Shown here: in pieces, positions 137 through 60,856 of the stretch
How positions within the stretch are numbered: the stretch's first letter is position 1
Layout: every line of letters begins with the position of its first letter
Source: Sphingopyxis sp. CCNWLW2
GTDB lineage: Bacteria; Pseudomonadota; Alphaproteobacteria; Sphingomonadales; Sphingomonadaceae
Length of the DNA: 64,000 nt
Reading direction: 5' to 3'
Assembly (NCBI RefSeq): GCF_037095755.1
Contig: NZ_JBAWKJ010000004.1
Span: 1 to 64,000, forward strand
The notes under the pieces: generated by a model
The model's input: the letters and a program-made list of their open reading frames with translations, nothing else
Databases searched by the model: none
What the model was told of the DNA's origin: nothing
Made by a program: the position numbers and the translations under genes

Positions 137-152
137 CATCAGATGCCTGATG
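137..152. promoter_or_regulatory. Putative operator, CATCA-N6-YGATG family, site 1
   Basis: The inverted repeat reads CATCAGATGCCTGATG and ends about 90 bp before the CMD-family gene start at 244. With one more base on each side the arms are a perfect 7 bp (GCATCAG/CTGATGC) around ATGC. The same 16-bp architecture recurs at eight other gene starts in the window. No regulator can be named from sequence. Confidence 0.7.
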
Positions 153-243
153 CTTCGCTTCGGCGCGCGGTGAACGTCTCTGTCCGGTTGACGCGGCAAG
201 GACGCGGGTCCTAGGCGAAGGCATTGAAAGCAGGAGAAGGGCC

Positions 244-675
244 ATGGCAGAATTGGACAAGAAGCAGGAATCCGGTGTCGCCTTCATCACCGGCGTCATG
301 GGCGAAGCGTTTGGGACAGCATTTCGCGATGCGGCCGAAGCCGACCGCTTTTCATCCGACATCACGCGAATGGCCGCCGGTTGGGCCTTTCACGACGCCT
401 GGCAACATGACGGCATCACGCGCAAGGAAAAGAGTATCACGATCATTTCGGCCCTGATCGCGTCGCGTCAGCCGCTTGAACTCAAGAACCATGTCAAGAT
501 CGGCATAGCGAACGGCCTTACGGCAAAGGAGCTCGAGGGGATCCTGGTTCAACTGACACCCTATGTCGGTTTTCCCTGCATCGCATCGGCACAAACTGCG
601 GTGATCGAGGCGATGCGCGAGGCAGGCGTTTCGCCCGACGGCGTCGAGACGTCCGAAGAACGCGGGCTCCTCTGA
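244..675 (+). CDS. Carboxymuconolactone decarboxylase (CMD)-family protein
   Basis: A 143-residue, all-helical small protein. Residues about 45-130 (from DAWQHDG through LKNHVKIGIANGLT to the end of the helical core) match the CMD/AhpD-like fold. The CxxC redox pair of AhpD-type peroxidases is absent, so a peroxidase role is unlikely; a decarboxylase, lactone-processing or accessory role is possible. The start at 244 is preceded by an AGGAGAAGG ribosome-binding site. The acyl-CoA ligase begins 7 bp after the stop, so the two are co-transcribed. The operator-like repeat at 137-152 lies upstream. The family assignment is firm; the reaction is unknown. Confidence 0.8.
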   Translation: MAELDKKQESGVAFITGVMGEAFGTAFRDAAEADRFSSDITRMAAGWAFHDAWQHDGITRKEKSITIISALIASRQPLELKNHVKIGIANGLTAKELEGILVQLTPYVGFPCIASAQTAVIEAMREAGVSPDGVETSEERGLL

Positions 676-682
676 GCAAGCC

Positions 683-2308
683 ATGGCGTCGCTAGCTCCT
701 GGCAGCCCGCATTTCTCGGGCCTCACGCTTTCGCTGGAGCATAGCCTGCCAGCTGTGATCGCGCATGTGGCGCGCCGGCACGAGGACCGGACGTTCATCG
801 TTGAGGCGGACGGCAGCCGCACCAGCTTTGGAGCCTTCGAAGTGCAGGTGGCCCGGCTCTCTGCAGCACTTGTTGCGCATGGCATCGAACATGGAGACCG
901 CGTCGCGATCTGGGCGCCAAACGGCCGCGAATGGATCGTCGCAGCGAGTGCGATCGAAAGCATCGGCGCGATCCTCGTCCCGATCAACACGCGCTTCAAA
1001 GGGCGCGAGGCCGGCTTCGCCTTATCGAAGACGCGCGCAAGCGCGCTGTTCACGGTCGGCGAATTCCTCGGCAACAACTACACTGCAATGCTTCGCGAGG
1101 CTTGCGGCGACGCGCTCGGCGACACGCCCTGCGCCGGTCTTCCCGCGCTCCGCCATATCGTCGAAATGGATGGCGACGCTTTCGAGACGTTCCAGGCGAC
1201 CCGGTCCGACCCATCCGTGGTCGCGGCGCGGATGGCGGCGGTTCGCCCACAGGATATCGCCGATATTCTTTTCACCAGCGGCACCACCGGCGAGCCGAAA
1301 GGCGCGATGCACAACCATGGCCAGGCGCTTTGGATGCCGGCGGTCTGGAACGAGGCCAATGACCTGCGGGCCGGCGACCGCATGGTGATCGTCAATCCCT
1401 TCTTCCACAGTTTTGGATACCGGTCGGGGTGGGTCTCCGCGCTCATCGCCGGCATTACCGTCTATCCAATCGCGTCATTCGATGCTGCCAATCTACTTGC
1501 CTTGATCGATCGGGAAGCCATTAGCGTTCTCATGGGTCCTCCGACCATCTTCTTTTCGCTGATGGAACATCCCGGTTTCGCCGATCATGATCTGTCATCG
1601 CTTCGCGTCGGGCATACCGGCGCCGCCAATGTGCCGGTCGATTTGATCCGCGCCGCGCGCGAGCAATTCGGTTTCGAAATCTTCCTCACCAGCTTCGGAC
1701 AGACCGAGTCGACAGCGCTCGTGACCGTTAACCGGCCGGGCGATAGTTTCGAGACGATCGCCAAGACCGTCGGCCTTCCCCTGCCCGGCGTCGAACTTCG
1801 GATTTCCAGGAGTGATGGAGGCCAGGCGCCGCAGGGCGAAAGCGGCGAACTGCTGGTTCGCGGCCCGAACGTGATGCAGGGTTACTTCGAAGAGCCAGAG
1901 CAGACCGCGGCGACGATCGATGCTGAAGGATGGCTCCACACGGGAGATGTCGCCTGCATCGGCGTAGATGGCAGACTGCGGATCCTCGACCGGCTCAAGG
2001 ATGTGGTCATCGTCGGAGGCTTCAACGCCTATCCCGCAGAAATCGAAAACATGCTCCGGCAGCACCCCGCGATCGCCGACGCTGCAGTCCTCGCCTGGCC
2101 CGACGAACGCATGGGTGAGGTTTGCGCTGCGGTCGTCATTCTTGCGCCGGGCGCCGACCTGTCGCTCGCAGAATTATCGGCCTGGAGCCGGGAGCAGATG
2201 GCGAACTACAAGGTGCCGCGCCATTTGTTCATGGTCTCGGAATTCCCGCGGACGCCGCTTGGGAAGGTACAGAAATTTGCCCTGCGCGAGCAATTGGCCG
2301 ATATCTGA
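683..2308 (+). CDS. Acyl-CoA ligase (AMP-binding, FadD-type)
   Basis: 541 residues, normal length for an ANL-superfamily ligase that adenylates a carboxylic acid with ATP and transfers it to CoA. The AMP/phosphate loop FTSGTTGEPKG is at residues 197-207. The hinge/C-terminal domain carries GWLHTGD and DRLKDVVIVGGFNAYPAEIE, and the adenylation lysine is K528 in PLGKVQK. It follows the CMD-family gene after 7 bp. It resembles medium-chain or cyclic-acid ligases (FadD3-like). The substrate is not predictable from sequence; the context suggests activation of an acid intermediate before beta-oxidation. Confidence 0.92.
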   Translation: MASLAPGSPHFSGLTLSLEHSLPAVIAHVARRHEDRTFIVEADGSRTSFGAFEVQVARLSAALVAHGIEHGDRVAIWAPNGREWIVAASAIESIGAILVPINTRFKGREAGFALSKTRASALFTVGEFLGNNYTAMLREACGDALGDTPCAGLPALRHIVEMDGDAFETFQATRSDPSVVAARMAAVRPQDIADILFTSGTTGEPKGAMHNHGQALWMPAVWNEANDLRAGDRMVIVNPFFHSFGYRSGWVSALIAGITVYPIASFDAANLLALIDREAISVLMGPPTIFFSLMEHPGFADHDLSSLRVGHTGAANVPVDLIRAAREQFGFEIFLTSFGQTESTALVTVNRPGDSFETIAKTVGLPLPGVELRISRSDGGQAPQGESGELLVRGPNVMQGYFEEPEQTAATIDAEGWLHTGDVACIGVDGRLRILDRLKDVVIVGGFNAYPAEIENMLRQHPAIADAAVLAWPDERMGEVCAAVVILAPGADLSLAELSAWSREQMANYKVPRHLFMVSEFPRTPLGKVQKFALREQLADI

Positions 2309-2358
2309 GAATGGGCGTGCGCGCCGACCTGCAGCACAAAGGAACATTGCCCGGCGGG

Positions 2359-2375
2359 TCGCGCCTTCGGCGCGA
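2359..2375. terminator. Possible stem-loop between convergent genes
   Basis: A 7-bp perfect stem (TCGCGCC/GGCGCGA) closes a TTC loop just after the ligase stop codon at 2308. No T-run follows on either strand, so it is at best a pause or stabilising hairpin. Confidence 0.3.
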
Positions 2376-2459
2376 GAAGCGAGGCTGAGGAAGCTTCGTC
2401 GATCGACGCGTGGCCGTCCTCGTTCTGCTACAGGAAAGCGCGAGTGACGGCACGCCGGG

Positions 2460-3542: not shown

Positions 3543-3555
3543 GAGGGAAATCCTC

Positions 3556-3597
3556 CAAAAGAAAGGGCCCGAACGTCCCCCAAAACGTTCGAGCCCT
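3556..3597 (-). terminator. Rho-independent terminator after the TonB receptor gene
   Basis: A 13-nt stem with one mismatch (arms 3564-3576 and 3585-3597; AGGGCTCGAACGT on the minus strand) and an 8-nt loop is followed on the minus strand by TTTCTTTT. This is a canonical intrinsic terminator. It lies about 60 bp beyond the receptor stop and just before the ribosome site of the phosphotransferase gene, so read-through into that gene may be limited. Confidence 0.85.
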
Positions 3598-3656
3598 GAC
3601 TTCGGCGCTGCCGGCGAAAGTCCCGCGTTGCCCCCGGGACTATCCCGATACGAAGA

Positions 3657-6029: not shown

Positions 6030-6363
6030 GAGCATCCCTCCATGAACGACAATCAGACGGCGATGCTCTCGGGTCGGCATCGTCCGCGTCGTGCGTCAGC
6101 TACCGCCATTTCGGTGCGGACAAAATAGCGCGGACCCAAAGTGGCGCGTCTCATCAGATACGCGATGATTCCACTGCCGATCGGACGGATTCCGCTACGA
6201 TAACGTGGCTGGCAGCAGGATTTTCAGCGTCTGTGTGCACGCCGGTTGCCCCGCTTCGCCAAACTTCGAGCGGCTGCCCGGACCGGGGAGCGGCTCGCGC
6301 GTTACTGTCGGGATCAAAAGGATCTCCTACGCCCGGCGGCGGCCGATTGCCGCTGCGGTCCTG
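6030..6363. other. Intergenic region upstream of the TonB receptor gene
   Basis: A 334-bp stretch without a convincing gene. It contains the operator-like repeat at 6152-6167 and two direct copies of GCGGAC at 6116 and 6130 (14-bp period), a possible second protein-binding site. No clear -35/-10 pair was recognised. The half nearest the acyl-CoA dehydrogenase stop shows only weak inverted repeats and no T-run. Confidence 0.5.
6152..6167. promoter_or_regulatory. Putative operator, CATCA-N6-YGATG family, site 2
   Basis: CATCAGATACGCGATG lies 122 bp upstream of the TonB receptor ATG. With one more base on each side the arms are TCATC/GATGA. The left half shares CATCAGAT with site 1 at 137. Confidence 0.7.
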
Positions 6364-7491: not shown

Positions 7492-7505
7492 TTCGCAAAT
7501 TCCTG

Positions 7506-8708: not shown

Positions 8709-8793
8709 CTCACGGCTCCCTAAAGGACTATCGGTAAAGTCTGAAGGTCGTCATGGCTTCAGCCGCACGGCCGCGCAAGGCGCGCCGCTCTCC

Positions 8794-8809
8794 CATCACC
8801 AATGCGATG
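8794..8809. promoter_or_regulatory. Putative operator, CATCA-N6-YGATG family, site 3
   Basis: CATCACCAATGCGATG lies 85 bp upstream of the acyl-CoA dehydrogenase start at 8708, in the 132-bp gap behind the GMC oxidoreductase gene. It suggests this gene pair has its own regulated promoter. Confidence 0.7.
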
Positions 8810-8840
8810 CCTTGCCGCGATGCCGAGTTCTTGCCGCGCG

Positions 8841-10532: not shown

Positions 10533-10587
10533 GCCTAGAACTCCTCCACGAGGCTTTTCTTTACTGCCCTTGCGAAGAACAATGATT

Positions 10588-10602: not shown

Positions 10603-10608
10603 GGAGAA

Positions 10609-10624
10609 CATCACCCTTGTGATG
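10609..10624. promoter_or_regulatory. Putative operator, CATCAC-N4-GTGATG, site 4 (perfect)
   Basis: CATCACCCTTGTGATG has perfect 6-bp arms and is the best copy of the family. It sits almost midway between the divergent starts at 10532 (-) and 10697 (+), 76 and 72 bp away, so one bound protein could control both. Confidence 0.75.
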
Positions 10625-15994: not shown

Positions 15995-17095
15995 ATGACT
16001 GTCACTCCCTTTCACATTGCTGTTCCCGACCAGGTCCTCGACCGGATTTCGCGCAAGCTTGCCGATGCCCGCCTTGGCTATGCGCCAGAGGATGCCGATC
16101 CCTGGGCGCATGGCATGAGTGCCGACTATCTTGGCGACTTCGTCGATTACTGGCGAGCGAGCTACAATTGGCGCGAGCAGGAAGAGGCGCTCAACGCCTG
16201 GCCGCAATTCAAAGCCGAGATCGACGGCATCCAGATACATTTTTATCATATCCGTGGTCGCGGTGACCGCCCCAAGCCGATCCTCCTCACCCATGGCTGG
16301 CCAGGCTCGGTGGCAGAGTTCCAGGTCGTCATGCCGTTGCTGGCAGGCGAGGGCTTCAGCCTGGTCGTCCCCTCGCTACCGGGTTTCGGCTGGTCGGGGC
16401 GTCCCGCGAAGCCGATCGGACCTGTGGCTGTCGCCTCGCTCTGGCGCCGGCTGATGACCGATGTTCTCGGCTATGAACATTTTTTCGCGCAAGGCGGCGA
16501 TTTCGGTTCAGCCGTCACTGTGCAGCTCGCATTGAACCACCCCGACGTCGTCGACGCGATCCACCTCAATTTTTTCATGCCGCCGCAACCTGGTGCGGAC
16601 GCCGACGCCGCGCTCCTCGAATATTGGGGCAAGGTTCGCCAGACGATGGAGGCGGAGAGCGGTTATCATCACGAACAGGCGACCAAGCCTCAGACGATCG
16701 GGCTCGCGCTCCACGACAATCCGGTCGGATGGGCGGCATGGGTCTTGGAGAAATTTCATGGCTGGGGAGACACCGGCGGCAACATCGAAAGCCGTTTCTC
16801 CAAGGACCATCTCATCACCAATTTGATGACCTATCTGGTGAGCGACACGATCATCTCGTCGTTCTGGATGTATTATGCATCCGGGCGCGAGCCGCGCACA
16901 ACTGGCCCGGTGACGGTGCCCACCGCCCTCGCCCGCTTCCCGGCGGAATTTTATCCGATGCCCGACCGCGCGCTCGCCGAGCGGCAATATGCCGTGGCAC
17001 AGTGGACCGAGATGAAGTCGGGTGGACATTTTGCGGCCATGGAAGAGCCCGAGGCTTTCGCGGAGGACGTCATCGCCTTTTTCAAAAGTCGCTGA
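15995..17095 (+). CDS. Epoxide hydrolase (alpha/beta hydrolase with N-terminal EHN domain)
   Basis: 366 residues. The N-terminal lid (FHIAVPDQVLDRISRKLADARL, then YWRASYNWREQE) is the epoxide-hydrolase N domain. The oxyanion motif is HGWPGS, the nucleophile D169 lies in QGGDFGSAV, and the catalytic His is H345 in SGGHFAAMEEPE. Such enzymes open an epoxide with water to a trans-diol through an ester intermediate. An epoxide could come from the P450s in the window. The start is 37 bp after the ligase stop; the ribosome site is weak. A haloalkane-dehalogenase role is less likely given the EHN domain. Confidence 0.92.
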   Translation: MTVTPFHIAVPDQVLDRISRKLADARLGYAPEDADPWAHGMSADYLGDFVDYWRASYNWREQEEALNAWPQFKAEIDGIQIHFYHIRGRGDRPKPILLTHGWPGSVAEFQVVMPLLAGEGFSLVVPSLPGFGWSGRPAKPIGPVAVASLWRRLMTDVLGYEHFFAQGGDFGSAVTVQLALNHPDVVDAIHLNFFMPPQPGADADAALLEYWGKVRQTMEAESGYHHEQATKPQTIGLALHDNPVGWAAWVLEKFHGWGDTGGNIESRFSKDHLITNLMTYLVSDTIISSFWMYYASGREPRTTGPVTVPTALARFPAEFYPMPDRALAERQYAVAQWTEMKSGGHFAAMEEPEAFAEDVIAFFKSR

Positions 17096-18223: not shown

Positions 18224-18239
18224 CATCACGGAGATGATG
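18224..18239. promoter_or_regulatory. Putative operator, CATCA-N6-YGATG family, site 5
   Basis: CATCACGGAGATGATG ends 86 bp before the SDR start at 18326. It suggests an internal promoter within the long plus-strand run. Confidence 0.65.
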
Positions 18240-22169: not shown

Positions 22170-22851
22170 GTCACGCAATGGCGCCAAGAGTGCCACAAAA
22201 GCAGCTTCGACACCGCCGGCAGCGGAAAAGGCTCCGCGACGGCGGCGGCGGACCCGCGAAGACGTAAGCGGACGTATTCGCGATGCGGCGCGGATCCTGT
22301 TCGCGGAGCGCGGCTTTGCGGCCGCCACCACGAAAGACATCGCGCGCCTCGCCGATGTGAGCGAAACGCTGCTGTTTCGCTACCATGGCGACAAGGCGAC
22401 GCTCTATAACGAGGTGGTCACCGAGCCTTTCGCGCGCTTGATGGACGATTTCGTCCGCCGCAATCCCGATCCCACTGCTCCCGGCTTTTCCGAAGCGGTG
22501 TCACGCCCGCTCACACGGCAGGTCTACGAGGTTTTCGAAGAAAATAGCGCGATGTTTCGCGCGCTCTTTACGGGTCAGCACCCGGCCGGCGGTGATGCGG
22601 CACCGAGCTTCAAGGGCCTTGCTCATTTCTTCGAGCAGTCGGTTGATCAGGTATCGCGCCGTTACGAGAGCGCCGGGCAGACGCCGACGTTCGATCTGGA
22701 CATCGGCGTCCGGCTTGGGCTCGGAATGATTTGCGCGAGCGTCCTATTGCGCGATGCGCTCTTTCCGGACTCGGTCCCGGACCGCGAAGCCCTCATCCGC
22801 GCGCTCGAAGACATCATCCAGGCCTCTCTGGGCGGGCCGGCACCGGATTGA
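22162..22851 (+). CDS. TetR-family regulator with apparent non-canonical ATC start
   Basis: The protein reads through a basic linker (PRRRRRTREDVSGRIRDAAR), an HTH (TTKDIARLADVSETLLFRYHGDK) and a helical ligand domain ending in ASLGGPAPD. After the in-frame stop at 22144 there is no ATG, GTG or TTG before the HTH. The only well-placed initiation site is ATC at 22162, with GGAGGG 5 nt upstream, overlapping the GMC stop by 8 nt. ATC starts are rare, so a sequence or frame error must be considered. About 229 residues from ATC is normal TetR length. It likely regulates the P450 operon immediately downstream through the palindrome at 22871. Confidence 0.8.
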   Translation: MAESRNGAKSATKAASTPPAAEKAPRRRRRTREDVSGRIRDAARILFAERGFAAATTKDIARLADVSETLLFRYHGDKATLYNEVVTEPFARLMDDFVRRNPDPTAPGFSEAVSRPLTRQVYEVFEENSAMFRALFTGQHPAGGDAAPSFKGLAHFFEQSVDQVSRRYESAGQTPTFDLDIGVRLGLGMICASVLLRDALFPDSVPDREALIRALEDIIQASLGGPAPD

Positions 22852-25876: not shown

Positions 25877-25892
25877 CATCACCCATCTGAAG
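25877..25892. promoter_or_regulatory. Weak operator-like site (CATCAC-N4-CTGAAG)
   Basis: CATCACCCATCTGAAG has a perfect left half and a degenerate right half, 111 bp before the amidohydrolase start at 26004. The surrounding 294-bp gap (25710-26003) holds no recognisable gene. Confidence 0.35.
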
Positions 25893-30301: not shown

Positions 30302-30317
30302 CATCACATTTCCGATG
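30302..30317. promoter_or_regulatory. Putative operator, CATCA-N6-YGATG family, site 6
   Basis: CATCACATTTCCGATG is centred between thiolase (30227, -) and enoyl-CoA hydratase (30406, +), 74 and 88 bp from their starts. Confidence 0.7.
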
Positions 30318-33595: not shown

Positions 33596-33611
33596 GATCA
33601 CGAATGCGATC
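33596..33611. promoter_or_regulatory. Weak operator-like site (GATCAC-N4-GCGATC)
   Basis: GATCACGAATGCGATC differs from site 3 at only three of 16 positions and ends 80 bp before the DUF1214 gene. It may be a degenerate member of the family. Confidence 0.35.
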
Positions 33612-34913: not shown

Positions 34914-34929
34914 TATCGCCTATGTGATG
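34914..34929. promoter_or_regulatory. Weak operator-like site (TATCGC-N4-GTGATG)
   Basis: TATCGCCTATGTGATG has a perfect right half of the CATCAC-N4-GTGATG family and ends 68 bp before the etfB start. Confidence 0.45.
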
Positions 34930-34997: not shown

Positions 34998-35747
34998 ATG
35001 AAAATCCTCGTCCCCGTCAAGCGGGTGCTCGATTACAATGTGAAGCCGCGGGTCAAATCCGACGGTACCGGCGTTGACCTTGCGAATGTCAAAATGTCGA
35101 TGAACCCGTTCGACGAAATCGGCGTCGAAGAAGCGATCCGCCTGAAGGAAAAGGGCGTCGCGACCGAGATCGTCGCGGTTTCCGTCGGCCCGGCCAAGGC
35201 GCAGGAAACGCTGCGCACCGCGCTGGCGATGGGCGTCGACCGCGCGATTCTGGTGCAGACCGACGATGCGGTCGAGCCGCTCGCGCTCGCGAAGATTTTC
35301 AAGGCGATCGCCGACGCCGAACAGCCCGGCCTTGTCATCCTTGGCAAGCAGGCGATCGACGATGACAACAACCAGACCGGCCAGATGCTTGCGGCACTGA
35401 CCGGCTGGGCGCAGGGCACCTTCGCCAGCGCGGTCAATGTCGAGGGCGACAGCGTCAATGTGACGCGCGAAGTCGACGGTGGCCTCGAAACGGTGAAGCT
35501 CAAGCTCCCCGCGATCGTCACCACCGACCTTCGCCTGAACGAGCCCCGCTATGCCTCGCTGCCGAACATCATGAAGGCGAAGTCGAAGCCGCTCGATACG
35601 AAGTCGCCCGCCGATTACGGCGTCGACACCGCGCCGCGCGTCAAGACGGTCAAGGTGTCGGAACCGCCCGTCCGCTCGGCTGGCGTCAAGGTCGCCGATG
35701 TCGATGAACTGGTTGCCAAGCTGAAAGCGCTGGGAGTGCACTCATGA
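34998..35747 (+). CDS. etfB: Electron transfer flavoprotein subunit beta
   Basis: 249 residues from the ATG at 34998 ([14 protein letters not shown]), with GAGGGAGAA upstream. The sequence shows the conserved [29 protein letters not shown] and [18 protein letters not shown] of EtfB. EtfB binds AMP and with EtfA carries electrons from acyl-CoA dehydrogenases to ETF-ubiquinone oxidoreductase. Its presence inside a catabolic operon implies a dedicated pair serving the dehydrogenases at 6364-8708. It overlaps etfA by 4 bp (ATGA). Confidence 0.97.
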
Positions 35748-36673
35748 AAACTCTGGTTTGGGTCGAACATGACGGCAAGGCCGTCAAGGACGCCACGCTT
35801 GCGGTGGTCACTGCCGCGTCGAAGCTTGGCGAAGTCCATCTGCTTGTCGCCGGTTCGGGCGTCGATGCGGTTGCCAAGGAAGCCGCTGCCATCGCCGGCG
35901 TCGGCAAGGTGCATGTCGCCGACAACGCCGCTTTCGGTCACAATCTGCCCGAAAATATCGCGCCGCTCGTCGCCGACCTGATGGGCAGCCACGACGCGTT
36001 CCTCGCGCCCGCGACGACCACCGGCAAGAATATCGCGCCGCGCGTCGCCGCGCTGCTCGACGTGATGCAGATTTCGGAAATCCTGTCGGTCGAGGGTCCG
36101 AAGACCTTCACCCGCCCGATCTACGCCGGCAACGCAATCGCGACCGTCGAATCGTCGGATGCGAAGCTGGTCCTCACCGTTCGCGGCACCGCGTTCGACA
36201 AGGCCGCGACCTCCGGCGGTTCGGGCACCGTCGAAGCCGTGGGCGCGGGCAGCGATGCCGGCATCTCGAGCTTCGTCGGCGCCGAGATTGCCAAGCAGGA
36301 TCGTCCCGAACTGACCTCGGCGAAGATCATCGTCTCGGGTGGCCGTGCGCTGGGTTCGAGCGAGAAATATCAGGAAGTGATCGTCCCGCTCGCCGACAAG
36401 CTTGGCGCTGCGCTCGGGGCTTCGCGCGCTGCGGTCGATGCGGGCTATGTCCCCAACGATTATCAGGTCGGCCAGACCGGCAAGATCGTCGCGCCGCAGG
36501 TCTATTTCGCGATCGGCATTTCGGGCGCAATCCAGCATCTCGCCGGCATGAAGGATTCGAAGACGATCGTCGCGATCAACAAGGACGAAGACGCGCCGAT
36601 CTTCCAGGTCGCCGATTTAGGCCTCGTCGCCGATCTGCTAACGGCCGTACCCGAGTTGACGAGCAAGATTTAG
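35744..36673 (+). CDS. etfA: Electron transfer flavoprotein subunit alpha
   Basis: 309 residues. The C-terminal FAD domain carries [35 protein letters not shown] and [16 protein letters not shown], the standard EtfA signatures. It forms a heterodimer with EtfB from the overlapping upstream gene. The acyl-CoA ligase gene begins 8 bp after the stop, extending the operon. The etfBA sequences look more conserved and housekeeping-like than their neighbours, so they may be a duplicated chromosomal pair recruited to the cluster. Confidence 0.97.
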
Positions 36674-38198: not shown

Positions 38199-38942
38199 TC
38201 AGTCGAACAATTCGGGTGATGCCAACCGGTCAGCGATGAAGCGGCAGAAGCGCGCGGCGTCGGCGCCGTTGATCACTCGATGATCGTAGCTCAGCGAGAG
38301 CGGCAGCATTTGGCGCCAGGCGACCCCGCCGTCCTCGGTCGGGACTGGAACAGGACGCGCCCTGGTGACGCCAAGGATCGCGACTTCGGGTGCGTTGACG
38401 ATCGGGCTGAAGCTCGTCCCACCGATATGTCCGAGCGACGTCAACGTGATGCAGCCCCCCGACATCTCCGCCATCGAGAGCCCCTTGGTCCGCGCCTTCT
38501 CGGACACCGCCAACAACTCGGCCGAAATTTCAGCCGCCGATTTCCTGTCGGAATCGCGGATAACCGGCACGAGCAACCCGCCAGGTGTATCGACCGCAAC
38601 GCCGACATGCACATATTTCTTGGTGACGATTTCGCCGCTAGCAGGATCGAGCGAAGCATTGAACTGCGGATAGGCTGCGAGCGCATCGGCCAGCGCCTTC
38701 ACGAGGAGCGGCACGGGGGTAAGCTTTGCGCCGCCACTGGCCGCGAGCGCCTTGCGGCGCGCTTCGAGCTCGGTCACATCGGCGTCGTCGTTATGCGTGA
38801 CGTGCGGAATCGCGACCCAGTTGCGGCCGAGGAACGACGCAACGAATTTTTGGATGCGGCTCAGCGGCTTGCGCTCAATCTCGCCGAATTCGGTGAAATC
38901 GACCTGCGGCCATGGGGCGATATTCTGAAGCAGTTCGGTCAC
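38199..38942 (-). CDS. 2-Oxoacid dehydrogenase E2, stand-alone catalytic (acyltransferase) domain
   Basis: 247 residues starting at GTG 38942 (GAGGAAG upstream). The sequence is only the catalytic domain: PLSRIQKFVASFLGRNWVAIPHVTHNDDADVTELE, later LTSLGHIGGTSFSPIVNAPEVAILG and the catalytic His H221 in LSYDHRVINGADAARF. No lipoyl or peripheral-subunit-binding domain precedes it. The lipoyl domain is encoded separately 130 bp upstream. It should transfer the acyl group from lipoyl to CoA within a complex with the E1 subunits at 39322-41312. Confidence 0.92.
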   Translation of the reverse strand: MTELLQNIAPWPQVDFTEFGEIERKPLSRIQKFVASFLGRNWVAIPHVTHNDDADVTELEARRKALAASGGAKLTPVPLLVKALADALAAYPQFNASLDPASGEIVTKKYVHVGVAVDTPGGLLVPVIRDSDRKSAAEISAELLAVSEKARTKGLSMAEMSGGCITLTSLGHIGGTSFSPIVNAPEVAILGVTRARPVPVPTEDGGVAWRQMLPLSLSYDHRVINGADAARFCRFIADRLASPELFD

Positions 38943-39072
38943 CGGTTCTTCCTCTTCGGTACGCGCCGACAGGCAGCGGGCAATCGAAATGGCGGCCCGG
39001 CGATGCGGCGGAGTGCAGCGGGCGGTCGGACGGTCAGCTTATCGCTTCCGCCGGCCAGCCGCGTCTGGTTGA

Positions 39073-39303
39073 TTATTCGATGATCGCCAGGACCGCGCCG
39101 ACCTCGTAGGTCTCCCCGATCTGGCCGACGATCTTGAGCTTGCCTGTAGCCGGGCTATCGACTTCCTGTGTCGATTTCTCGGACTCGAATGCGTAGAGCG
39201 GCTGCCCTTCCACCGCTTGGCCGCCATCCTCGACGAGCCATTCGGCGAGTACGCCATCATTCATCGAAAATCCGACTTTCGGCAGGATAACTTCAAATGC
39301 CAT
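39073..39303 (-). CDS. Free-standing lipoyl (biotinyl-lipoyl attachment) domain protein
   Basis: 76 residues that make up exactly one lipoyl domain. The modified lysine is K43 in ESEKSTQEVDSP. It begins FEVILPKVGFSMNDGVLAEW and ends with VLAIIE, without linker or other domain. It lies between E1 beta and the catalytic E2 gene, so it is the swinging arm of a split E2, comparable in concept to GcvH. It needs lipoate attachment by LipA/LipB or LplA encoded elsewhere. Confidence 0.92.
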   Translation of the reverse strand: MAFEVILPKVGFSMNDGVLAEWLVEDGGQAVEGQPLYAFESEKSTQEVDSPATGKLKIVGQIGETYEVGAVLAIIE

Positions 39304-39321
39304 GGGAAAACTCCTTGTCGA

Positions 39322-40332
39322 TCAATTGGTGAAAAGCGCTTTGACCGTTGCGACGATTTCGGGTGTCTGCGGCGCGAACGCGGTCTCGAGCGGCTTCGAA
39401 AAAGGAACCGGGCAAAAGGCCCCGCCAAGACGCTTGATTGGCGCCTTGAGCCTTCCGAACAATTCGTCGCCCAGCACCGCGGCGATCTCGGCTCCGACAC
39501 CGAACGGCGTAACAGCCTCGTGCACGATAAGAGCCCTGGCCGTCTTCCTCACCGATGCGAGCACCGCTTCGCGGTCCCACGGCGCAATCGTGCGAAGGTC
39601 GATGAGTTCGGCAGATATTCCGGCCTCCGCTAGCTCTGCCACTGCGGGCATCGCTTCCTGGATCATGCGCGCATAGGCGATGATGGTGATATCATTTCCT
39701 GCGGCGACGATATTGGCCTTGCCGATCGGAACCCGGTAATCCGTCTCGGGGGCATCGGCCGGCGACCAATAGGTTGGCAGGTTCTCGATAAACAGTACGG
39801 GGTCCGGATCGTCGATCGCCGAACGCATGAGGCCGTAGGCGTCCTTTGGGCTCGACGGCGCAACAACCTTGATGCCCGCTGTGTGCGCGAACCATGCTTC
39901 GAGATAGTCGCTGTGTTGGCCGCCCGAGGAGAAGCCCGTTCCGGTCATGGTGCGAATGACGATCGGAACGTGGGTTTGTCCGCCCGACATGAAGCGCAGC
40001 TTGGCCGCGTGGTTCACAATCATGTCCATCGCGACCGTCGTGAAGTTCATTAGCATGATTTCGGCGATCGGCTTGAAGCCCGCCAGCGAGGCCCCGATTG
40101 CGGCACCAATAATCGCCTGCTCCGAGATCGGGGTCGAGCGGACGCGCGCGTCGCCGAACCGTGTCGAAAGCCCCTTGGTGACGCCGACCACCCCGCCCTC
40201 TTCGGGATCGGCGACATCTTCGCCGAGCAGCAGAACTGTATCATCGGCCTCCATGGCATCAGCCACGGCCGTGTTGATGGCCTGCAGAATGTTCATCTGC
40301 TTCGGCTTTTTCTCGGCAGTATCGGTGCTCAT
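39322..40332 (-). CDS. 2-Oxoacid dehydrogenase E1 component, beta subunit
   Basis: 336 residues. The transketolase-like pyrimidine domain begins MNILQAINTAVADAMEADD and includes LLLGEDVADPEEGG, FGDARVRSTPISEQAIIGAAIGASLAG and the C-terminal LIVHEAVTPFGVGAEIAA. It pairs with the overlapping upstream E1 alpha gene. The closest families are the pyruvate/acetoin/branched-chain dehydrogenases. It decarboxylates a 2-oxoacid (or cleaves acetoin) with thiamine diphosphate and reductively acylates the lipoyl domain. No E3 gene is present, so a genomic dihydrolipoyl dehydrogenase must serve. Confidence 0.93.
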   Translation of the reverse strand: MSTDTAEKKPKQMNILQAINTAVADAMEADDTVLLLGEDVADPEEGGVVGVTKGLSTRFGDARVRSTPISEQAIIGAAIGASLAGFKPIAEIMLMNFTTVAMDMIVNHAAKLRFMSGGQTHVPIVIRTMTGTGFSSGGQHSDYLEAWFAHTAGIKVVAPSSPKDAYGLMRSAIDDPDPVLFIENLPTYWSPADAPETDYRVPIGKANIVAAGNDITIIAYARMIQEAMPAVAELAEAGISAELIDLRTIAPWDREAVLASVRKTARALIVHEAVTPFGVGAEIAAVLGDELFGRLKAPIKRLGGAFCPVPFSKPLETAFAPQTPEIVATVKALFTN

Positions 40333-41312
40333 CAGACCAACTCCTCGGCGAAAATGTCGCGCTTCAGTTCCTCGACGCCCGGGAACGGACTCTCGAGCGC
40401 GAATTCGACGGCTTGGGAAATCGCATCCTCGATCTCCGCTTCGATGCTGGCGAGTTGCTCCTCGGTAGACACGCCGCTTTCGATCAGCAGGGCCCGGAAC
40501 CTAGGGACCGGGTCGTTGGCAATCGCCTCCGCCTTCCGGGCCTTGTCCATATATGTATCCTGGTCGCCGAGCACATGACCGTGGAACCGATAGGTCATCG
40601 CCTCGATCAAGGTCGGGCCCTCGCCTGCGCGTGCACGAGCGATGGCCTCATGCGCAGCCGCGTACATGGCAAAGGGATCGTTTCCGTCGACCCGCTCGCC
40701 CGGCATGCCATAGGCTGCGGCACGGTCGGCGACGATGACGTTGCTCGTTTTGTCATAGGCGGTGTGCTCGCCCCACTCGTTGTTCTGGCAAAGGAAGATC
40801 ACCGGAAGCTTCCACACGGCAGCGAGATTGAGCGATTCATGAAATGCGCCGATATTCGCCGCGCCGTCGCCGAACGTCGCGACCGTGACGCGCCCGTCAC
40901 CCTTCAGCTGCGAAGCCCAGGCCAGGCCATTGGCGATCGGCATCGAGGATCCGACGATTCCGGTCGTGACCATCACACCCTTGTCGGGATAGGTCAGATG
41001 CATCGGACCACCCTTGCCCTTGCACGTGCCGGTCGTCCGTCCCGCTACTTCGGCCCACATGTCCTTAAGCGGAAACCCCTTCGCAAGCATGTCGTGCGTG
41101 CCGCGATAAATGGTGCACAGATAATCATCGTCGGTCAGATTGACGAAAGTTGCGCTCGGGATGACCTCCTGGCCTCGCGGACTGTAATAAGGCATCACGA
41201 GGCGCCCTGTCATAATGACCTTGCGCGAGCGCTCGTCGTTCGCCTTGATAAGCGCCATCCGGCGGTAAATTTCCACCTGGGTCGCAGCGTCGGGAATGGC
41301 TCGGTTGCTCAT
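40332..41312 (-). CDS. 2-Oxoacid dehydrogenase E1 component, alpha subunit
   Basis: 326 residues. The thiamine-diphosphate motif reads GDGAANIGAFHESLNLAAVWKLP through FLCQNNEWGEHT. Other marks are IYRGTHDMLAKG and KGGPMHLTYPDKG. It is first in the operon E1 alpha-E1 beta-lipoyl domain-E2. An AAAGGA ribosome site lies upstream of 41312. Length and motifs resemble AcoA/PdhA-type subunits more than branched-chain BkdA1. It probably oxidises a 2-oxoacid produced by the aldol cleavage route, such as pyruvate or a branched acid, which is an inference. Confidence 0.93.
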   Translation of the reverse strand: MSNRAIPDAATQVEIYRRMALIKANDERSRKVIMTGRLVMPYYSPRGQEVIPSATFVNLTDDDYLCTIYRGTHDMLAKGFPLKDMWAEVAGRTTGTCKGKGGPMHLTYPDKGVMVTTGIVGSSMPIANGLAWASQLKGDGRVTVATFGDGAANIGAFHESLNLAAVWKLPVIFLCQNNEWGEHTAYDKTSNVIVADRAAAYGMPGERVDGNDPFAMYAAAHEAIARARAGEGPTLIEAMTYRFHGHVLGDQDTYMDKARKAEAIANDPVPRFRALLIESGVSTEEQLASIEAEIEDAISQAVEFALESPFPGVEELKRDIFAEELV

Positions 41313-41419: not shown

Positions 41420-41435
41420 TATCGCGGATGTGAAC
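41420..41435. promoter_or_regulatory. Weak operator-like site (TATCGC-N4-GTGAAC)
   Basis: TATCGCGGATGTGAAC lies 107 bp upstream of the E1 alpha start. It matches the weak site at 57208 in 14 of 16 positions, suggesting a related subfamily of the operator. Confidence 0.35.
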
Positions 41436-42503: not shown

Positions 42504-42519
42504 CATCAGACTGCCGATG
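42504..42519. promoter_or_regulatory. Putative operator, CATCA-N6-YGATG family, site 7
   Basis: CATCAGACTGCCGATG lies between divergent starts at 42394 (-) and 42619 (+), 109 and 99 bp away. It is immediately upstream of a good -35 hexamer for the SDR gene. Confidence 0.7.
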
Positions 42520-43403: not shown

Positions 43404-43419
43404 CACCACATATGTGAAG
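43404..43419. promoter_or_regulatory. Weak operator-like site around CACATATGTG
   Basis: CACCACATATGTGAAG contains a perfect 10-bp palindrome (43407-43416) and matches the CATCAC-N4-GTGATG consensus at 10 of 12 arm positions. It lies just upstream of the MFS gene. Confidence 0.4.
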
Positions 43420-46601: not shown

Positions 46602-46605
46602 GCGA

Positions 46606-48895: not shown

Positions 48896-48911
48896 CATCA
48901 TCATTGTGATG
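48896..48911. promoter_or_regulatory. Putative operator, CATCA-N6-YGATG family, site 8
   Basis: CATCATCATTGTGATG overlaps the last codons of the TetR gene and lies 62 bp upstream of the P450 start. It indicates the P450 operon has its own promoter separate from TetR. Confidence 0.65.
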
Positions 48912-49620
48912 GAGTGCTCGAACCGGATCGGGCGGAACCCGAACCGCGCGGCGGCTCGGTGGCCTTGAACAGCATGCGCGCAAGGGCAAACTCCTGCGCT
49001 TCGTCGACCGGCGCTTCGCCCGGGAAGAACCATTCGCGAAACAGGACGGCACCAGCCAGCATGCCGAAGGCGTGACGTACGACAAGGCCGGGCTCGACGT
49101 CGAACTCCCAACCGGCGCGAATGAACGCTTCGCGCATGCGCGCCTCGGCCGCGGCGAAATAGCCATCAAGACCGTGCAGCGCGTCACTGTCCATATCGCC
49201 GCTCGATTTAACGAGCGCATGGAGGAGATCCGAATTTTCGCGCAGGAATGGGTAAAGAAGATGGACGAAATGCGCGCTGCGTCCTTCCCGATCCGCGTCG
49301 ATGCCCGAGTCGCTCGCCGCGATCAGTGCCGATAAGCGATCGTTGAACGGCTCGATGACAGCGGCGGCGAAGAGCTGAGCTTTTCCACCGAAATTGTTGA
49401 AGATCAGCGGTTCGGCGACCACGGCCCGATCGGCGATCTGGCGCGTCGTGGCCCCAGCAAAACCCCGTTCTGCAAACACCGCACGTGCCGCCGAGATGAT
49501 GAGCGATCGGATTTCACCCGATCCCCGACGCGCCCGCCGTACCGGACCAGTTTCGCCGCCTTTCGGATTAAAATCAGCCATTCGCGCCCGCCTACCTGTC
49601 ATCGCCTGTCGAATCCCCAT
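48901..49620 (-). CDS. TetR-family transcriptional regulator
   Basis: 239 residues. The HTH is in ARAVFAERGFAGATTRQIADRAVVAEPLIFNNFGGKAQLFAAAV; Asn-Asn-Phe replaces the usual Tyr-His-Phe. The C-terminal helical domain ends in SARSGSSTPSQ. The start at 49620 has a G-rich ribosome site 8 nt upstream; ATGs at 49602 and 49581 are alternatives. It is divergent from amidohydrolase copy B across an 82-bp AT-rich region with nested inverted repeats, its likely operator. It may repress itself, the P450 operon and the amidohydrolase. Confidence 0.9.
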   Translation of the reverse strand: MGIRQAMTGRRARMADFNPKGGETGPVRRARRGSGEIRSLIISAARAVFAERGFAGATTRQIADRAVVAEPLIFNNFGGKAQLFAAAVIEPFNDRLSALIAASDSGIDADREGRSAHFVHLLYPFLRENSDLLHALVKSSGDMDSDALHGLDGYFAAAEARMREAFIRAGWEFDVEPGLVVRHAFGMLAGAVLFREWFFPGEAPVDEAQEFALARMLFKATEPPRGSGSARSGSSTPSQ

Positions 49621-49635
49621 TGCGTACCCCCACCA

Positions 49636-49662
49636 GAATACGCTAAATAGTATTTGCTATTC
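49636..49662. promoter_or_regulatory. Candidate TetR operator, nested AT-rich inverted repeats
   Basis: GAATA and TATTC flank the perfect AAATA-G-TATTT palindrome at 49645-49655. AT-rich in a GC-rich context and placed between the divergent TetR and amidohydrolase genes. Different from the CATC/GATG family, which is absent here. Confidence 0.55.
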
Positions 49663-49702
49663 AAGCCGCATCGCAGAGTCGGCATCAAGGAGAGGTTCCA
49701 AA

Positions 49703-51445: not shown

Positions 51446-51455
51446 TCGCGCGCTA

Positions 51456-52451: not shown

Positions 52452-52539
52452 TTGTCACTCCCGACGGCGGGCTGCCGCCTTCTCCTGTCGTAACTGATCG
52501 CATGCAACGGCCCCTGGCCACTATCGGGCAAGGTCCAAT

Positions 52540-52555
52540 CATCAGGGACATGATG
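52540..52555. promoter_or_regulatory. Putative operator, CATCA-N6-YGATG family, site 9
   Basis: CATCAGGGACATGATG is centred between divergent starts of the alpha/beta hydrolase (52451) and thiolase (52634), 88 and 78 bp away. Confidence 0.7.
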
Positions 52556-52633
52556 GAGGGCCGCGCGCTATCGATCGCGGCGGCGGTCCCGCCTATCAGC
52601 CGTCTTTCTCCGTAGCCGAGGAAGATCCAGCCG

Positions 52634-53827: not shown

Positions 53828-53839
53828 CTCCCCGTCGTT

Positions 53840-56299: not shown

Positions 56300-56302
56300 G
56301 GG

Positions 56303-57106: not shown

Positions 57107-57122
57107 GTTTGTTGTCCCGTGC

Positions 57123-57140
57123 CTTGCGATCCGCCGCAAG
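57123..57140. promoter_or_regulatory. Inverted repeat CTTGCG-N6-CGCAAG
   Basis: Perfect 6-bp arms, with the same half-sites as the repeat at 10588 but a longer spacer. It is located 16 bp upstream of the hydratase start, so it could also be a leader hairpin. Confidence 0.35.
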
Positions 57141-57207
57141 CCTGTGTGGCGCATCGCCCTTGAAAAGGCGAGCCTTGCACGGCCGGTATCGGGGAACGGC
57201 TGGGCCA

Positions 57208-57223
57208 TATCACGGTTGTGAAC
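57208..57223. promoter_or_regulatory. Weak operator-like site (TATCAC-N4-GTGAAC)
   Basis: TATCACGGTTGTGAAC matches the CATCAC-N4-GTGATG consensus in 9 of 12 arm positions. It lies 101 and 74 bp from the divergent starts at 57106 and 57298. Confidence 0.4.
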
Positions 57224-57297
57224 AGCCGCACTTGTCCCTTGTCTTATCCATCCAGTCCGACGCAAGGGTGATCGATTGTTCAATGACAAGGTGCGAC

Positions 57298-58527: not shown

Positions 58528-58545
58528 GTCCGCGCGCCGCGAGCA

Positions 58546-59700
58546 TCAGACGTAGCCCCGCCGCGCGCGGTAGGCGGCGAACCTCTGCTCGAGCCATGCG
58601 CGCGTGAGACCGAATGCCTCGGGCGCATAGCGCGCCGGGCCCTGCGACGATACGGGCCGCGGATGCGCGTCGAGCCACGCCTGCATCTTCGCCTCGGTCA
58701 GGGGATGAAGGTCGATCGAAAAAACATCATAAATCGAGCGTATCACGCCGAGCTGGTCGCGCGTAAAATCGTGAAATTCGATGTCGATGAAAGCGGCCTC
58801 GCTGTTCGAGCGCGCGGCATGCGCCCGATCGAGCGCTTCCCCCCAAAAATTTGCTTCGCGCGGCCCCACATCGGCAGCGGCCGCGTTATCGCCGCAAAAG
58901 GCTCGCCGGGCGGCAAAGATCAAGCTGCTGATCGATGGCATCGCGTCGACAGGGTCGCGATGGGTTTGGACAACGCACGCATCGGGGAAGACCGTCAGCA
59001 GTTCGCCTAGCGAAAACAGGTCGGTCGGGTTTTTGAGCAGCCAGCGGCGCGGATCGTCGGCGCCGATGAGCCGCAGCACATCGGCCAGCCAGCGGTAACT
59101 GTCCTCGTCATTACGTCCGCGATACCAACTGTCATAGGCCGGAACAGGCCACATAGAGGGCCACATGTTGCTTGAAAAGCCGGAGGCGAGGATGAACAGC
59201 GATTCCTCTATGCCTTCGGCGGTCATCATATGATCTAGCGCTGCTTCGGGCGCCGCTGCGATGAAGCTGTCGAGCGCGGTCTTTTCAGCGAGATATTGCG
59301 CCGTGTTGACCCACTGATCGCGCGGCGGGCGCGGCATAGGGTACATCGCGAGCCAGTGCTCGGGCCCCTGAAATTGTGGGTCGAGCGACATCAGCTGGTG
59401 AAGCGCCGTTGTACCCGATCGTACCAATCCCACTATGACCACCGGTGCTTTGATCGGGCGGCCGCGAACGTCTGGCCGCGCCTTCAGCCCTGCGACCGCC
59501 AAGGCGCGCGCGTCGAGCGACTGACCGATGCGAAAAGCGCTCGCCGCGGCGAATTCGGGCGCCAGGTCAAGATCGTCTACCGCACGCAGAAGTAGGTCGA
59601 ATCCCTCGCGAAACGCCGGATCGCCAAAGTCCGAAAGACCGGTACGCGCCGTCGACGCTGCGAGCATCGCGGCCGGGGTGAAGAGATTTTCGCTTCTCAT
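58546..59700 (-). CDS. Sulfotransferase family protein
   Basis: 384 residues from the ATG at 59700, which overlaps the MDR stop (ATGA). The PAPS 5'-phosphosulfate loop is VGLVRSGTTALHQL and the 3'-phosphate site is VVQTHRDPVDAMPS. It belongs to the large bacterial sulfotransferase clade common in mycobacteria and sphingomonads. Sulfation of a hydroxylated hydrophobic intermediate is plausible, but many members of this clade are uncharacterised. It is the last gene of the four-gene minus-strand operon. Confidence 0.88.
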   Translation of the reverse strand: MRSENLFTPAAMLAASTARTGLSDFGDPAFREGFDLLLRAVDDLDLAPEFAAASAFRIGQSLDARALAVAGLKARPDVRGRPIKAPVVIVGLVRSGTTALHQLMSLDPQFQGPEHWLAMYPMPRPPRDQWVNTAQYLAEKTALDSFIAAAPEAALDHMMTAEGIEESLFILASGFSSNMWPSMWPVPAYDSWYRGRNDEDSYRWLADVLRLIGADDPRRWLLKNPTDLFSLGELLTVFPDACVVQTHRDPVDAMPSISSLIFAARRAFCGDNAAAADVGPREANFWGEALDRAHAARSNSEAAFIDIEFHDFTRDQLGVIRSIYDVFSIDLHPLTEAKMQAWLDAHPRPVSSQGPARYAPEAFGLTRAWLEQRFAAYRARRGYV

Positions 59701-60710
59701 GCCGAGGCCCAAGGGTCGAGATGCAGCTTAGTTTCGCCGGAACCTGCACGTAACGCTTCGAAATGGGCGGGAAATGCATCCAGTCCGACCGTTCGCGACA
59801 CCATCAGCCTCGGCTCGACATGACCGGCGTCGAGCATGTCGGCACTCTCCTGGAAATCTGCGAGACTATAGGCGAAGGAGAAGCGCATGGTGGCGCGCTT
59901 CCAAGTCGCAAGCGCCGGGACAAGAGCGTCGGGCGCGGCGCAGAAGCCAAGCGATACGATCGTGCCGCCGGGGGCTACAAGCTCGACCGCTTTCTGCATC
60001 GAGCCGACCGCGCCGGTGCACTCGAACAGGATATCGGGTGGGCCACCGAGCGCAGCGGCGAGCCGTTCGCCCTCGCCTTCGCCGAAGGCTTCGAAGCCCT
60101 GCGCGCCCACGTCGTTCGCGAGCGGCGCGCGGCGTGCCGAACGCGACATGGCGACAACGCAGCCGGCACCTAGGTGGCGTGCCCAGTAGATCACCGCGAG
60201 CCCGATCGACCCGGCTCCAAGGACTGCAACTCGCGATCCGGGGGTCATCTTCGCAAGGCGCACGCCATGCAGCCCGACCGCGAGCGGCTCGACGAGCGCG
60301 CCGTCGAGCGCAGAAAGGCCCGCCGGCAAAGAAATGGCGCTGCTCGCAGCGACGCGCATATATTCGCCAAAGCCTCCCACCATGCCTTCCATTGCGGTGC
60401 AGGCAATCGGATACCCTTCCCTGCAACGAGCGCAGACGCCACATCCCCTGCACGGCATCGCGGTCACGCGCTCACCCGTCCCGAAGCCTCCGGCATCCTT
60501 GCCCGCCGCAACGATTTCGCCGGAAAACTCGTGGCCGATGACTGTCCCGAGGGGCACATCATCGCCATGCCCGGACGTCATATGGAGATCTGTGCCGCAC
60601 ACGCCGCACCGCTCGACGCGGATGACGAGCTCACCCTCGCCGGGAACAGGGTCTGCTACGATTTCGACCGCAAGCGGCAGCCCCGCGCCCCTGAATATCG
60701 CGGCCCTCAT
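59697..60710 (-). CDS. Zinc-dependent MDR alcohol dehydrogenase
   Basis: 337 residues from the ATG at 60710. Catalytic zinc ligands lie in RCGVCGTDLH and GTVIGHEFSG. The structural-zinc lobe CRGCGVCARCREGYPIAC has four cysteines, and the cofactor motif is AVLGAGSIGLAVI. It resembles threonine/sorbitol-type dehydrogenases acting on secondary alcohols with NAD(P)+. It overlaps the sulfotransferase by 4 bp and follows the second MDR gene after 190 bp, a gap holding a weak operator-like site. Confidence 0.92.
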   Translation of the reverse strand: MRAAIFRGAGLPLAVEIVADPVPGEGELVIRVERCGVCGTDLHMTSGHGDDVPLGTVIGHEFSGEIVAAGKDAGGFGTGERVTAMPCRGCGVCARCREGYPIACTAMEGMVGGFGEYMRVAASSAISLPAGLSALDGALVEPLAVGLHGVRLAKMTPGSRVAVLGAGSIGLAVIYWARHLGAGCVVAMSRSARRAPLANDVGAQGFEAFGEGEGERLAAALGGPPDILFECTGAVGSMQKAVELVAPGGTIVSLGFCAAPDALVPALATWKRATMRFSFAYSLADFQESADMLDAGHVEPRLMVSRTVGLDAFPAHFEALRAGSGETKLHLDPWASA

Positions 60711-60840
60711 GCCCTGACCCTTCGAACAGGCATTGCAGCATCCTTCCCACGAGCCGCGCTCATTCGGCACGGCATTCGAACCGGCATTTCGCCGCCATGC
60801 GCCCGGGCAAGTCAAGAAAACGCACGCCAACAAGGATATT

Positions 60841-60856
60841 CATCACGAACATGATC
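60841..60856. promoter_or_regulatory. Weak operator-like site (CATCAC-N4-ATGATC)
   Basis: CATCACGAACATGATC has a perfect left half and one mismatch in the GATG end, 130 bp upstream of the MDR start at 60710. Confidence 0.45.

What the first reader, a model, noticed from the sequence alone, without database searches (positions are those of the whole stretch)
137..60856. One operator-like inverted repeat (CATCA-N6-YGATG) marks most transcription units across 60 kb
Nine exact copies of CATC-N8-GATG, all with A as first and pyrimidine as last spacer base, lie at 137, 6152, 8794, 10609, 18224, 30302, 42504, 48896 and 52540. Each is 60-125 bp upstream of a start codon, and four are centred between divergent genes. 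The perfect form is CATCAC-N4-GTGATG (10609). At least seven weaker copies (25877, 33596, 34914, 41420, 43404, 57208, 60841) cover most other units. By base composition I would expect about one exact copy anywhere in the window. This ties CoA ligase, TonB receptor, dehydrogenases, thiolases, P450 and SDR genes into one regulon under a regulator I cannot name. The two TetR-linked units with their own palindromes and the LysR unit lack the motif.
Basis: partly seen in the sequence, partly recalled or inferred. Interest (0 to 1): 0.95.

Follow-up and report, generated by a model that had tools for sequence, protein, structure and literature searches.

The report
One switch site for many genes
The same short mirrored DNA sequence stands in front of most gene groups of a predicted steroid-type degradation cluster, recurs in front of many of the matching genes in other bacteria, and is likely the docking site of one nearby IclR-type regulator that would switch the whole pathway together.

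Summary
The window is nearly all of contig C4. C4 has 14 intergenic sites of at least 12 bits in 4,704 intergenic bases; 140 kb elsewhere in this genome has 1 in 21,676. In eight relatives, orthologues of site-bearing genes carry a site in 54 of 82 cases, other orthologues in 20 of 176.

The unnamed regulator is probably 'IclR67', encoded beside a second IclR at the start of contig C2, which synteny places next to C4. The site lies in the IclR pair's promoter region in 9 of 12 genomes, though not in this one, is enriched before distant IclR67 homologues (10 of 38 against 65 of 701 windows), and shares the inner core of a published IclR consensus. Its position, mostly 70-99 b before the start codon, suggests activation. 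Binding and activation are untested; IclR68 and a co-occurring AraC regulator remain rivals.

The parts
108..123 (.). site CATCACATGCTTGATG, distal member of the tandem pair before g01
   Evidence: 21.2 bits; 29 b from the next copy; pairs 28-30 b apart before the g01 orthologue in N. endophyticum and three Sphingobium genomes
137..152 (.). site CATCAGATGCCTGATG before g01 (CMD family) and g02 (CoA ligase)
   Evidence: 21.4 bits, 99 b from g01 start; >=10 bits in 3 of 6 orthologues (for S. chungbukense that count took a g01 paralogue without a site, although another g01-like gene there has the pair)
6152..6167 (.). site before g04 (TonB-dependent receptor)
   Evidence: 20.9 bits, 124 b from start; 5 of 5 orthologues
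8794..8809 (.). site before g06 (acyl-CoA dehydrogenase)
   Evidence: 20.9 bits, 93 b from start; 4 of 4 orthologues
10609..10624 (.). perfect site CATCACCCTTGTGATG between divergent g07 (GMC oxidoreductase) and g08 (SDR)
   Evidence: 22.1 bits; 3 of 4 (g07) and 5 of 5 (g08) orthologues
18224..18239 (.). site before g14 (SDR)
   Evidence: 19.1 bits; 6 of 6 orthologues
25877..25892 (.). weaker site before g21 (amidohydrolase)
   Evidence: 15.9 bits; 0 of 8 orthologues reach 10 bits; 9.3 bits in N. endophyticum
30302..30317 (.). site between divergent g24 (thiolase) and g25 (enoyl-CoA hydratase)
   Evidence: 21.7 bits; exact motif at the same place in 8 of 10 close loci; 7 of 7 (g24) and 6 of 6 (g25) orthologues
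33596..33611 (.). weaker site before g29 (DUF1214)
   Evidence: 10.5 bits; 3 of 3 orthologues
34914..34929 (.). site before g30-g31 (ETF subunits)
   Evidence: 16.1 bits, 76 b from start; no orthologue in the fetched stretches
41420..41435 (.). weak site before g36 (dehydrogenase E1 alpha)
   Evidence: 2.2 bits; g36 orthologues reach 10 bits in 3 of 7
42504..42519 (.). site between divergent g37 (enoyl-CoA hydratase) and g38 (SDR)
   Evidence: 17.8 bits; 5 of 7 (g37) and 1 of 7 (g38) orthologues
43404..43419 (.). weaker site before g39 (MFS)
   Evidence: 13.7 bits; 0 of 4 orthologues
48896..48911 (.). site before g43 (P450), overlapping the end of g44
   Evidence: 22.2 bits, 70 b from g43 start; 1 of 1 orthologue
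52540..52555 (.). site between divergent g46 (hydrolase) and g47 (thiolase)
   Evidence: 18.5 bits; 0 of 4 (g46) and 2 of 2 (g47) orthologues
57208..57223 (.). weak site between divergent g51 (enoyl-CoA hydratase) and g52 (CoA transferase III)
   Evidence: 4.6 bits; TATCACGGTTGTGAAG at the orthologous place in N. endophyticum
60841..60856 (.). site before g54 (zinc-type alcohol dehydrogenase)
   Evidence: 16.2 bits; 3 of 3 orthologues

Best explanation
CATCA-N6-YGATG is repeated in front of most transcription units of a predicted steroid-type catabolic cluster, is conserved at many of the same promoters in other genera, and is likely the operator of the cluster's own IclR-family regulator, here called IclR67 (encoded outside the window at G000:C2:1112-1954), which is predicted to activate these promoters together. 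Shown: the sites, their enrichment, their conservation, their placement mostly 70-99 b before start codons, and the presence of IclR67 in every examined genome that has the site before g25. Inferred: that IclR67 binds them, as a dimer on the mirrored half-sites (perhaps a tetramer at the tandem pair before g01); that it activates rather than represses, because before g25 the site lies upstream of the likely -35 element; that the inducer is a pathway intermediate such as a CoA thioester or steroid acid. The divergent partner IclR68 is predicted to bind the GTTCG-N6-CGAAC palindrome of the IclR promoter region, a second control layer on the regulator genes.
For: Sites cluster on C4, and the cluster parts at the C2 start have two intergenic sites (12.8 and 16.1 bits) and at the C3 end one (14.8 bits). 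Orthologous promoters keep them: 54 of 82 against 20 of 176. IclR67 lies inside the cluster in relatives and is found in 11 of 11 genomes. The IclR67/68 promoter region holds a site of 16-21 bits in 9 of 12 genomes and of 10.4 in one more. Distant IclR67 homologues have ATCR-N6-YGAT upstream in 10 of 38 cases, against 65 of 701 windows of the same loci (p 0.003), 3 of 124 gene upstreams of this genome and 0 of 18 IclR68-homologue upstreams (p 0.013). Half-site TCA at 5.5/4.5/3.5 b from the centre matches YCR of the published IclR group-1 consensus GKTYCRYW3-4RYGRAMC (passages of PMC8222616). IclR67 has HTH_IclR and IclR_C. 80 of 158 upstream stretches with a site of at least 12.5 bits have it 70-99 b from the start codon. 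A conserved CTTGACC follows the site before g25 in 7 of 7 aligned sequences.
Against: The IclR promoter region of this genome has no good site (best 4.9 bits) and that of N. endophyticum one arm only (5.0). The outer arm departs from the IclR consensus (CAT where it has GKT). In Sphingomonas azotifigens, where IclR67 is only 38% alike, no site follows g24, but g25 itself is missing there, so this case says little. An AraC-family regulator (C2:14897-15880) co-occurs as well: 12 of 13 genomes. The motif link to distant homologues is partial (10 of 38), weak in the class-wide set alone (2 of 12), and not distinct from IclR68 homologues at PWM>=14 (6 of 38 against 1 of 18, p 0.27) or PWM>=10 (9 of 38 against 3 of 18, p 0.41). 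The column-permutation test is not specific: IclR68 homologues pass it too. GTNCG-N5-6-CGNAC was found in 0 of 17 upstreams of IclR68 homologues, which does not help the part given to IclR68. No fixed -10/-35 spacing was found over all sites.
Confidence: 0.55

Rival explanations
1. The sites are bound by the neighbouring IclR68, or by an IclR67-IclR68 heteromer.
For: IclR68 is equally linked and present in 11 of 11 genomes (34% in S. azotifigens) and shares the promoter region with IclR67.
Against: IclR68 resembles the PcaR/PcaU/PobR group (TIGR02431, 109 bits, below its cut-off of 284.75), whose published sites are of the GTNCG-N5-6-CGNAC type. Such a palindrome lies in the IclR promoter region. 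None of 18 IclR68-homologue upstreams has ATCR-N6-YGAT, though 3 of 18 reach 10 bits with the matrix.
Confidence: 0.15
2. The sites are bound by the cluster's AraC-family regulator (C2:14897-15880).
For: Present in 12 of 13 genomes, at 39-56% identity in the other eleven, and missing in S. azotifigens.
Against: AraC proteins usually bind asymmetric or direct-repeat sites (recalled, no call), while this motif is mirrored. It is less conserved than IclR67. Its homologues' promoters were not tested.
Confidence: 0.1
3. The same regulator acts as a repressor that is lifted by substrate, as PheR does in Sphingobium sp. SHPJ-2 (this rival shares the regulator with the best explanation and differs in the sign of control).
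For: An IclR-family repressor of uptake and catabolism is known in Sphingobium (abstract and passages of PMC13273656). No promoter start is mapped here.
Against: PheR's footprint covers +23 to -21, while these sites lie mostly 70-99 b before start codons and, before g25, upstream of a conserved TTGAC.
Confidence: 0.3
4. A LysR or TetR regulator of the cluster binds the sites.
For: In relatives a LysR gene stands divergent to the g29 orthologue (G151, G152, G154) or to an SDR gene (G149, G150) with a site in the shared region; two TetR genes lie on C4.
Against: In the searched stretches of this genome (C4 and C2:1-20000) that LysR has only a 42% match, g57, whose promoter lacks the site. TetR g17 is not found in Sphingomonas sp. 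Y57, which has the site. The TetR and LysR promoters on C4 lack the motif.
Confidence: 0.08

Closest known systems
IclR-family regulons with the group-1 operator GKTYCRYW3-4RYGRAMC (Suvorova and Gelfand 2021, PMC8222616; passages and section 4 read)
   Same: Mirrored site, inner core YCRY-N4-RYGR with an A/T-leaning centre, candidate regulator of the same family, catabolism of ring compounds
   Different: Outer arm CAT instead of GKT; many units in one cluster instead of generally one or two adjacent operons; most sites lie at or beyond the outer edge of the -20 to -80 zone
PheR of Sphingobium sp. SHPJ-2 (PMC13273656; abstract and passages read)
   Same: IclR-family control of uptake and catabolism in a sphingomonad
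   Different: Repressor with a GCAACG core and a footprint at +23 to -21
EdcR of Caenibius tardaugens (PMC8700777; passages read)
   Same: Palindrome-based control of a steroid cluster in a sphingomonad
   Different: Putative operator TnnCnnTACnAnTnGTAnnGnnA over the -10 box; repressor; four promoter regions

Membership tests
IclR family (the regulator IclR67) | N-terminal HTH_IclR and C-terminal IclR_C domains | tested here: met
   PF09339 42.6 bits (cut-off 22) and PF01614 42.5 bits (cut-off 24)
IclR family operator, group 1 | GKTYCRYW3-4RYGRAMC | tested here: inconclusive
   Inner YCRY-N4-RYGR agrees (base frequencies; consensus); outer positions do not
IclR family regulon | Regulates its own gene | tested here: inconclusive
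   Site in the IclR67/68 promoter region in 9 of 12 genomes, absent in this one
IclR family regulon | Generally its own gene and one or two adjacent operons (PMC8222616) | tested here: not met
   14 intergenic sites of at least 12 bits on C4 alone; a usual habit, not a rule of membership
IclR family regulon | Protein binds the site | not testable with these tools
   Needs EMSA or footprinting
PcaR/PcaU/PobR subfamily (IclR68) | TIGR02431 above cut-off | tested here: not met
   109.2 bits against 284.75
Steroid catabolic cluster | 3-ketosteroid-delta-1-dehydrogenase | tested here: met
   C2:13225-14880, NF009478 846.4 bits (cut-off 789)
Steroid catabolic cluster | Ring-opening 9,10-seco enzymes (meta-cleavage dioxygenase) | not tested
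   None appeared in the Pfam scan of 56 of 57 C4 genes; the rest of the genome was not searched for them

The most novel reading that the evidence does not exclude
IclR67 founds an unrecognised operator class of the IclR family, YATCR-N6-YGATR, used by a broad alphaproteobacterial clade of related regulators, and serves as the single master activator of a whole steroid-type catabolic island that travels with its switch between Sphingomonadaceae and Azospirillum/Niveispirillum.
Probability: 0.4. Interest if true: 0.65.

Novelty: new variant of a known kind. Interest (0 to 1): 0.55.

Why it matters
It turns a large unannotated cluster into one testable regulon with a named candidate regulator and a defined 16-base site, gives a tag for finding missing pathway genes in other genomes, and would add an operator type to a regulator family whose specificity code is still incomplete.

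Tried and rejected
TetR g17, TetR g44, LysR g57 and the relatives' other LysR were considered as regulators and rated low. Sigma-54 and fixed -35/-10 spacing: no clear peak over the 113 sites 60-130 b from starts. Perfect-site counts in 149 family genomes showed no general enrichment (67 of 149 have a match, one to four each), so a family-wide global regulator is unlikely. The permutation p of 0.0005 was first taken as strong and then dropped as unspecific after the IclR68 control; one search gives the figures to use. Literature: six searches listed, by titles and starts of abstracts, no paper on this motif or on an IclR regulator of such a cluster; only open-licence papers are held.

Dropped before counts: ten of 48 IclR67-homologue loci were dropped as near copies by hand, 38 left, 38 were left after removal by shared 16-mers. 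Of 27 IclR68-homologue loci taken up, one at a contig edge was left out (L297), and 26 were reduced to 17 or 18 as near copies; one search listed further places without loci. G351 and G184 were not counted apart because their coordinates equal those of G152 and G154. S. azotifigens (G155) and Azospirillum B4 (G156) stretches were not fetched for the orthologue count, which covers 8 of 10 relatives and only part of each genome. Three cases with an own score of 9-10 bits (0 of 3) stand outside the two classes. One of the eight control stretches (L058) had been fetched around a motif match. Gene g57 was not in the Pfam scan; it was read as LysR by eye. Gene calls are from my own script and were not checked against an annotation. 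On re-reading, the S. azotifigens case was moved from evidence for to evidence against, since g25 is missing there; confidence was lowered from 0.60 to 0.55 for that reason.
Full report
The window is bases 1-64000 of contig C4 (64,955 b) of a 4.62-Mb, six-contig genome. My gene calls give 57 genes on C4. Pfam shows CoA ligases, acyl-CoA dehydrogenases, thiolases, enoyl-CoA hydratases, three P450s with a ferredoxin, SDRs, a TonB receptor, ETF subunits and a split 2-oxoacid dehydrogenase: one catabolic cluster. Regulators on C4 are two TetR genes (g17, g44) and, read by eye, one LysR gene (g57).

The motif is real. CATCA-N6-YGATG lies at 11 positions in the window; 18 matches on both strands against 0.44 expected. 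Genome-wide there are 73 distinct exact positions, 12 of them on C4 (counted; P 5e-10). With a matrix from these 12 C4 sites, C4 has 22 hits of at least 12 bits, 14 of them intergenic in 4,704 intergenic bases. Eight control stretches (140 kb) of the same genome have 11 hits, 1 intergenic in 21,676 bases (Fisher 4e-10). The nine symmetric CATCA-N6-TGATG positions outside C4 all lie in called ORFs. Of 20 non-convergent gaps of at least 100 b on C4, 12 hold a site of at least 10 bits, 2 a weaker one, 6 none (counted).

The motif is conserved. A scan for g27 relatives gave 80 loci. In 8 of the 10 closest (81-88% identical) the site between g24 and g25 is present at the same place: four Sphingobium species, Novosphingobium endophyticum, Sphingomonas sp. 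Y57, Rhizorhabdus histidinilytica and a Niveispirillum MAG. In Sphingomonas azotifigens g25 is missing and no site follows g24; the Azospirillum contig is cut there. I fetched cluster stretches of these eight genomes. For C4 genes with an own site of at least 10 bits, orthologues carry one in 54 of 82 cases; for genes below 9 bits in 20 of 176 (Fisher 1e-18). The matrix comes from C4 only, so the relatives are an independent test, though they are related to each other. Results against: g21 0 of 8, g39 0 of 4, g46 0 of 4, g38 1 of 7. The tandem pair before g01, 29 b apart, recurs with 28-30 b in N. endophyticum and three Sphingobium genomes.

Placement is regular: of 803 upstream stretches, 158 have a site of at least 12.5 bits, and 80 of these have it 70-99 b before the start codon, while best matches of low score are spread widely. 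Before g25, a CTTGACC follows the site in 7 of 7 aligned sequences, so the site would lie upstream of -35. Over all sites no fixed promoter spacing emerged. This favours, but does not prove, activation.

The regulator. Groups of orthologues without a C4 member include two divergent IclR genes inside the cluster. In this genome they stand at C2:1112-1954 (IclR67) and about C2:181-945 (IclR68), the very start of C2, followed by further cluster genes to about 16.8 kb with two more intergenic sites. The C3 end also carries two cluster-type genes and one site. By synteny C3 end, C4 and C2 start are likely neighbours; the gaps are not closed. Both IclRs occur in 11 of 11 genomes, at only 38 and 34% in S. 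azotifigens. IclR67 is found at E<=1e-25 in 28 of 397 family genomes, at 68% identity or more only in this genome and in four genomes of genus g32, and in none of the ten other genomes of its own genus, so the block looks acquired.

The shared IclR promoter region holds a CATCA site of 16.4-21.3 bits in 9 of 12 distinct genomes and 10.4 in a tenth; N. endophyticum keeps one arm and this genome has none. Distant IclR67 homologues (26-43% identical) have ATCR-N6-YGAT upstream in 10 of 38 cases. The same loci give 65 of 701 random windows (p 0.003), this genome's gene upstreams 3 of 124, IclR68-homologue upstreams 0 of 18 (p 0.013). At PWM>=14 the figures are 6 of 38, 13 of 701, 0 of 124 and 1 of 18; at PWM>=10 they are 9, 51, 4 and 3, so against IclR68 homologues the matrix score alone does not separate. 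The class-wide subset alone is weak, 2 of 12. An earlier permutation test proved unspecific.

Comparison with what is known. The inner core TCAY-N4-RTGA fits YCRY-W4-RYGR of the IclR group-1 consensus; the outer arm does not fit (PMC8222616, passages and section 4). None of the sites in that paper's Table 1 is this motif. The GTTCGAAATTTCGAAC palindrome in the IclR promoter region of this genome fits the GTNCG-N6-CGNAC type and is predicted to serve IclR68, which resembles PcaR/PcaU/PobR below the family cut-off; upstreams of 17 IclR68 homologues held no such palindrome. Known steroid control in sphingomonads by EdcR uses another putative palindrome (PMC8700777 passages). A 3-ketosteroid-delta-1-dehydrogenase model fits C2:13225-14880 above its cut-off, which is why I call the cluster steroid-type; the true substrate is unknown. 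An AraC regulator of the cluster is present in 12 of 13 genomes and is the main open rival besides IclR68.

Noticed in passing
window 22171-22851: TetR gene g17 is open from the HTH on, but no ATG, GTG or TTG precedes the HTH in its frame; it may start at a rare codon or hold an indel.
   Followed up: partly
L052:892-1111 (G000:C2): GTTCGAAATTTCGAAC and TTCGAA-N5-TTCGAA palindromes between the two IclR genes; TTCGAA pairs also in Sphingobium and N. endophyticum, not found in Sphingomonas Y57, Rhizorhabdus, Niveispirillum or Azospirillum.
   Followed up: partly
window 49582-49702: The TetR g44/g45 intergenic region has an A+T-rich stretch (CTAAATAGTATTTGCTATT) that may be that TetR's own operator.
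   Followed up: no
window 16813-16828: Exact motif inside g12 encoding LITNLM; the N. endophyticum orthologue has one too, explained by the protein sequence.
   Followed up: yes
L323:13206-13221 (G000:C3): Site of 14.8 bits just before a gene that reads like a TetR at the C3 end, next to two cluster-type genes.
   Followed up: partly
window 38199-41312: Split 2-oxoacid dehydrogenase (E1 alpha, E1 beta, free lipoyl domain, catalytic E2) and a separate ETF pair (34998-36673) inside the catabolic cluster.
   Followed up: no
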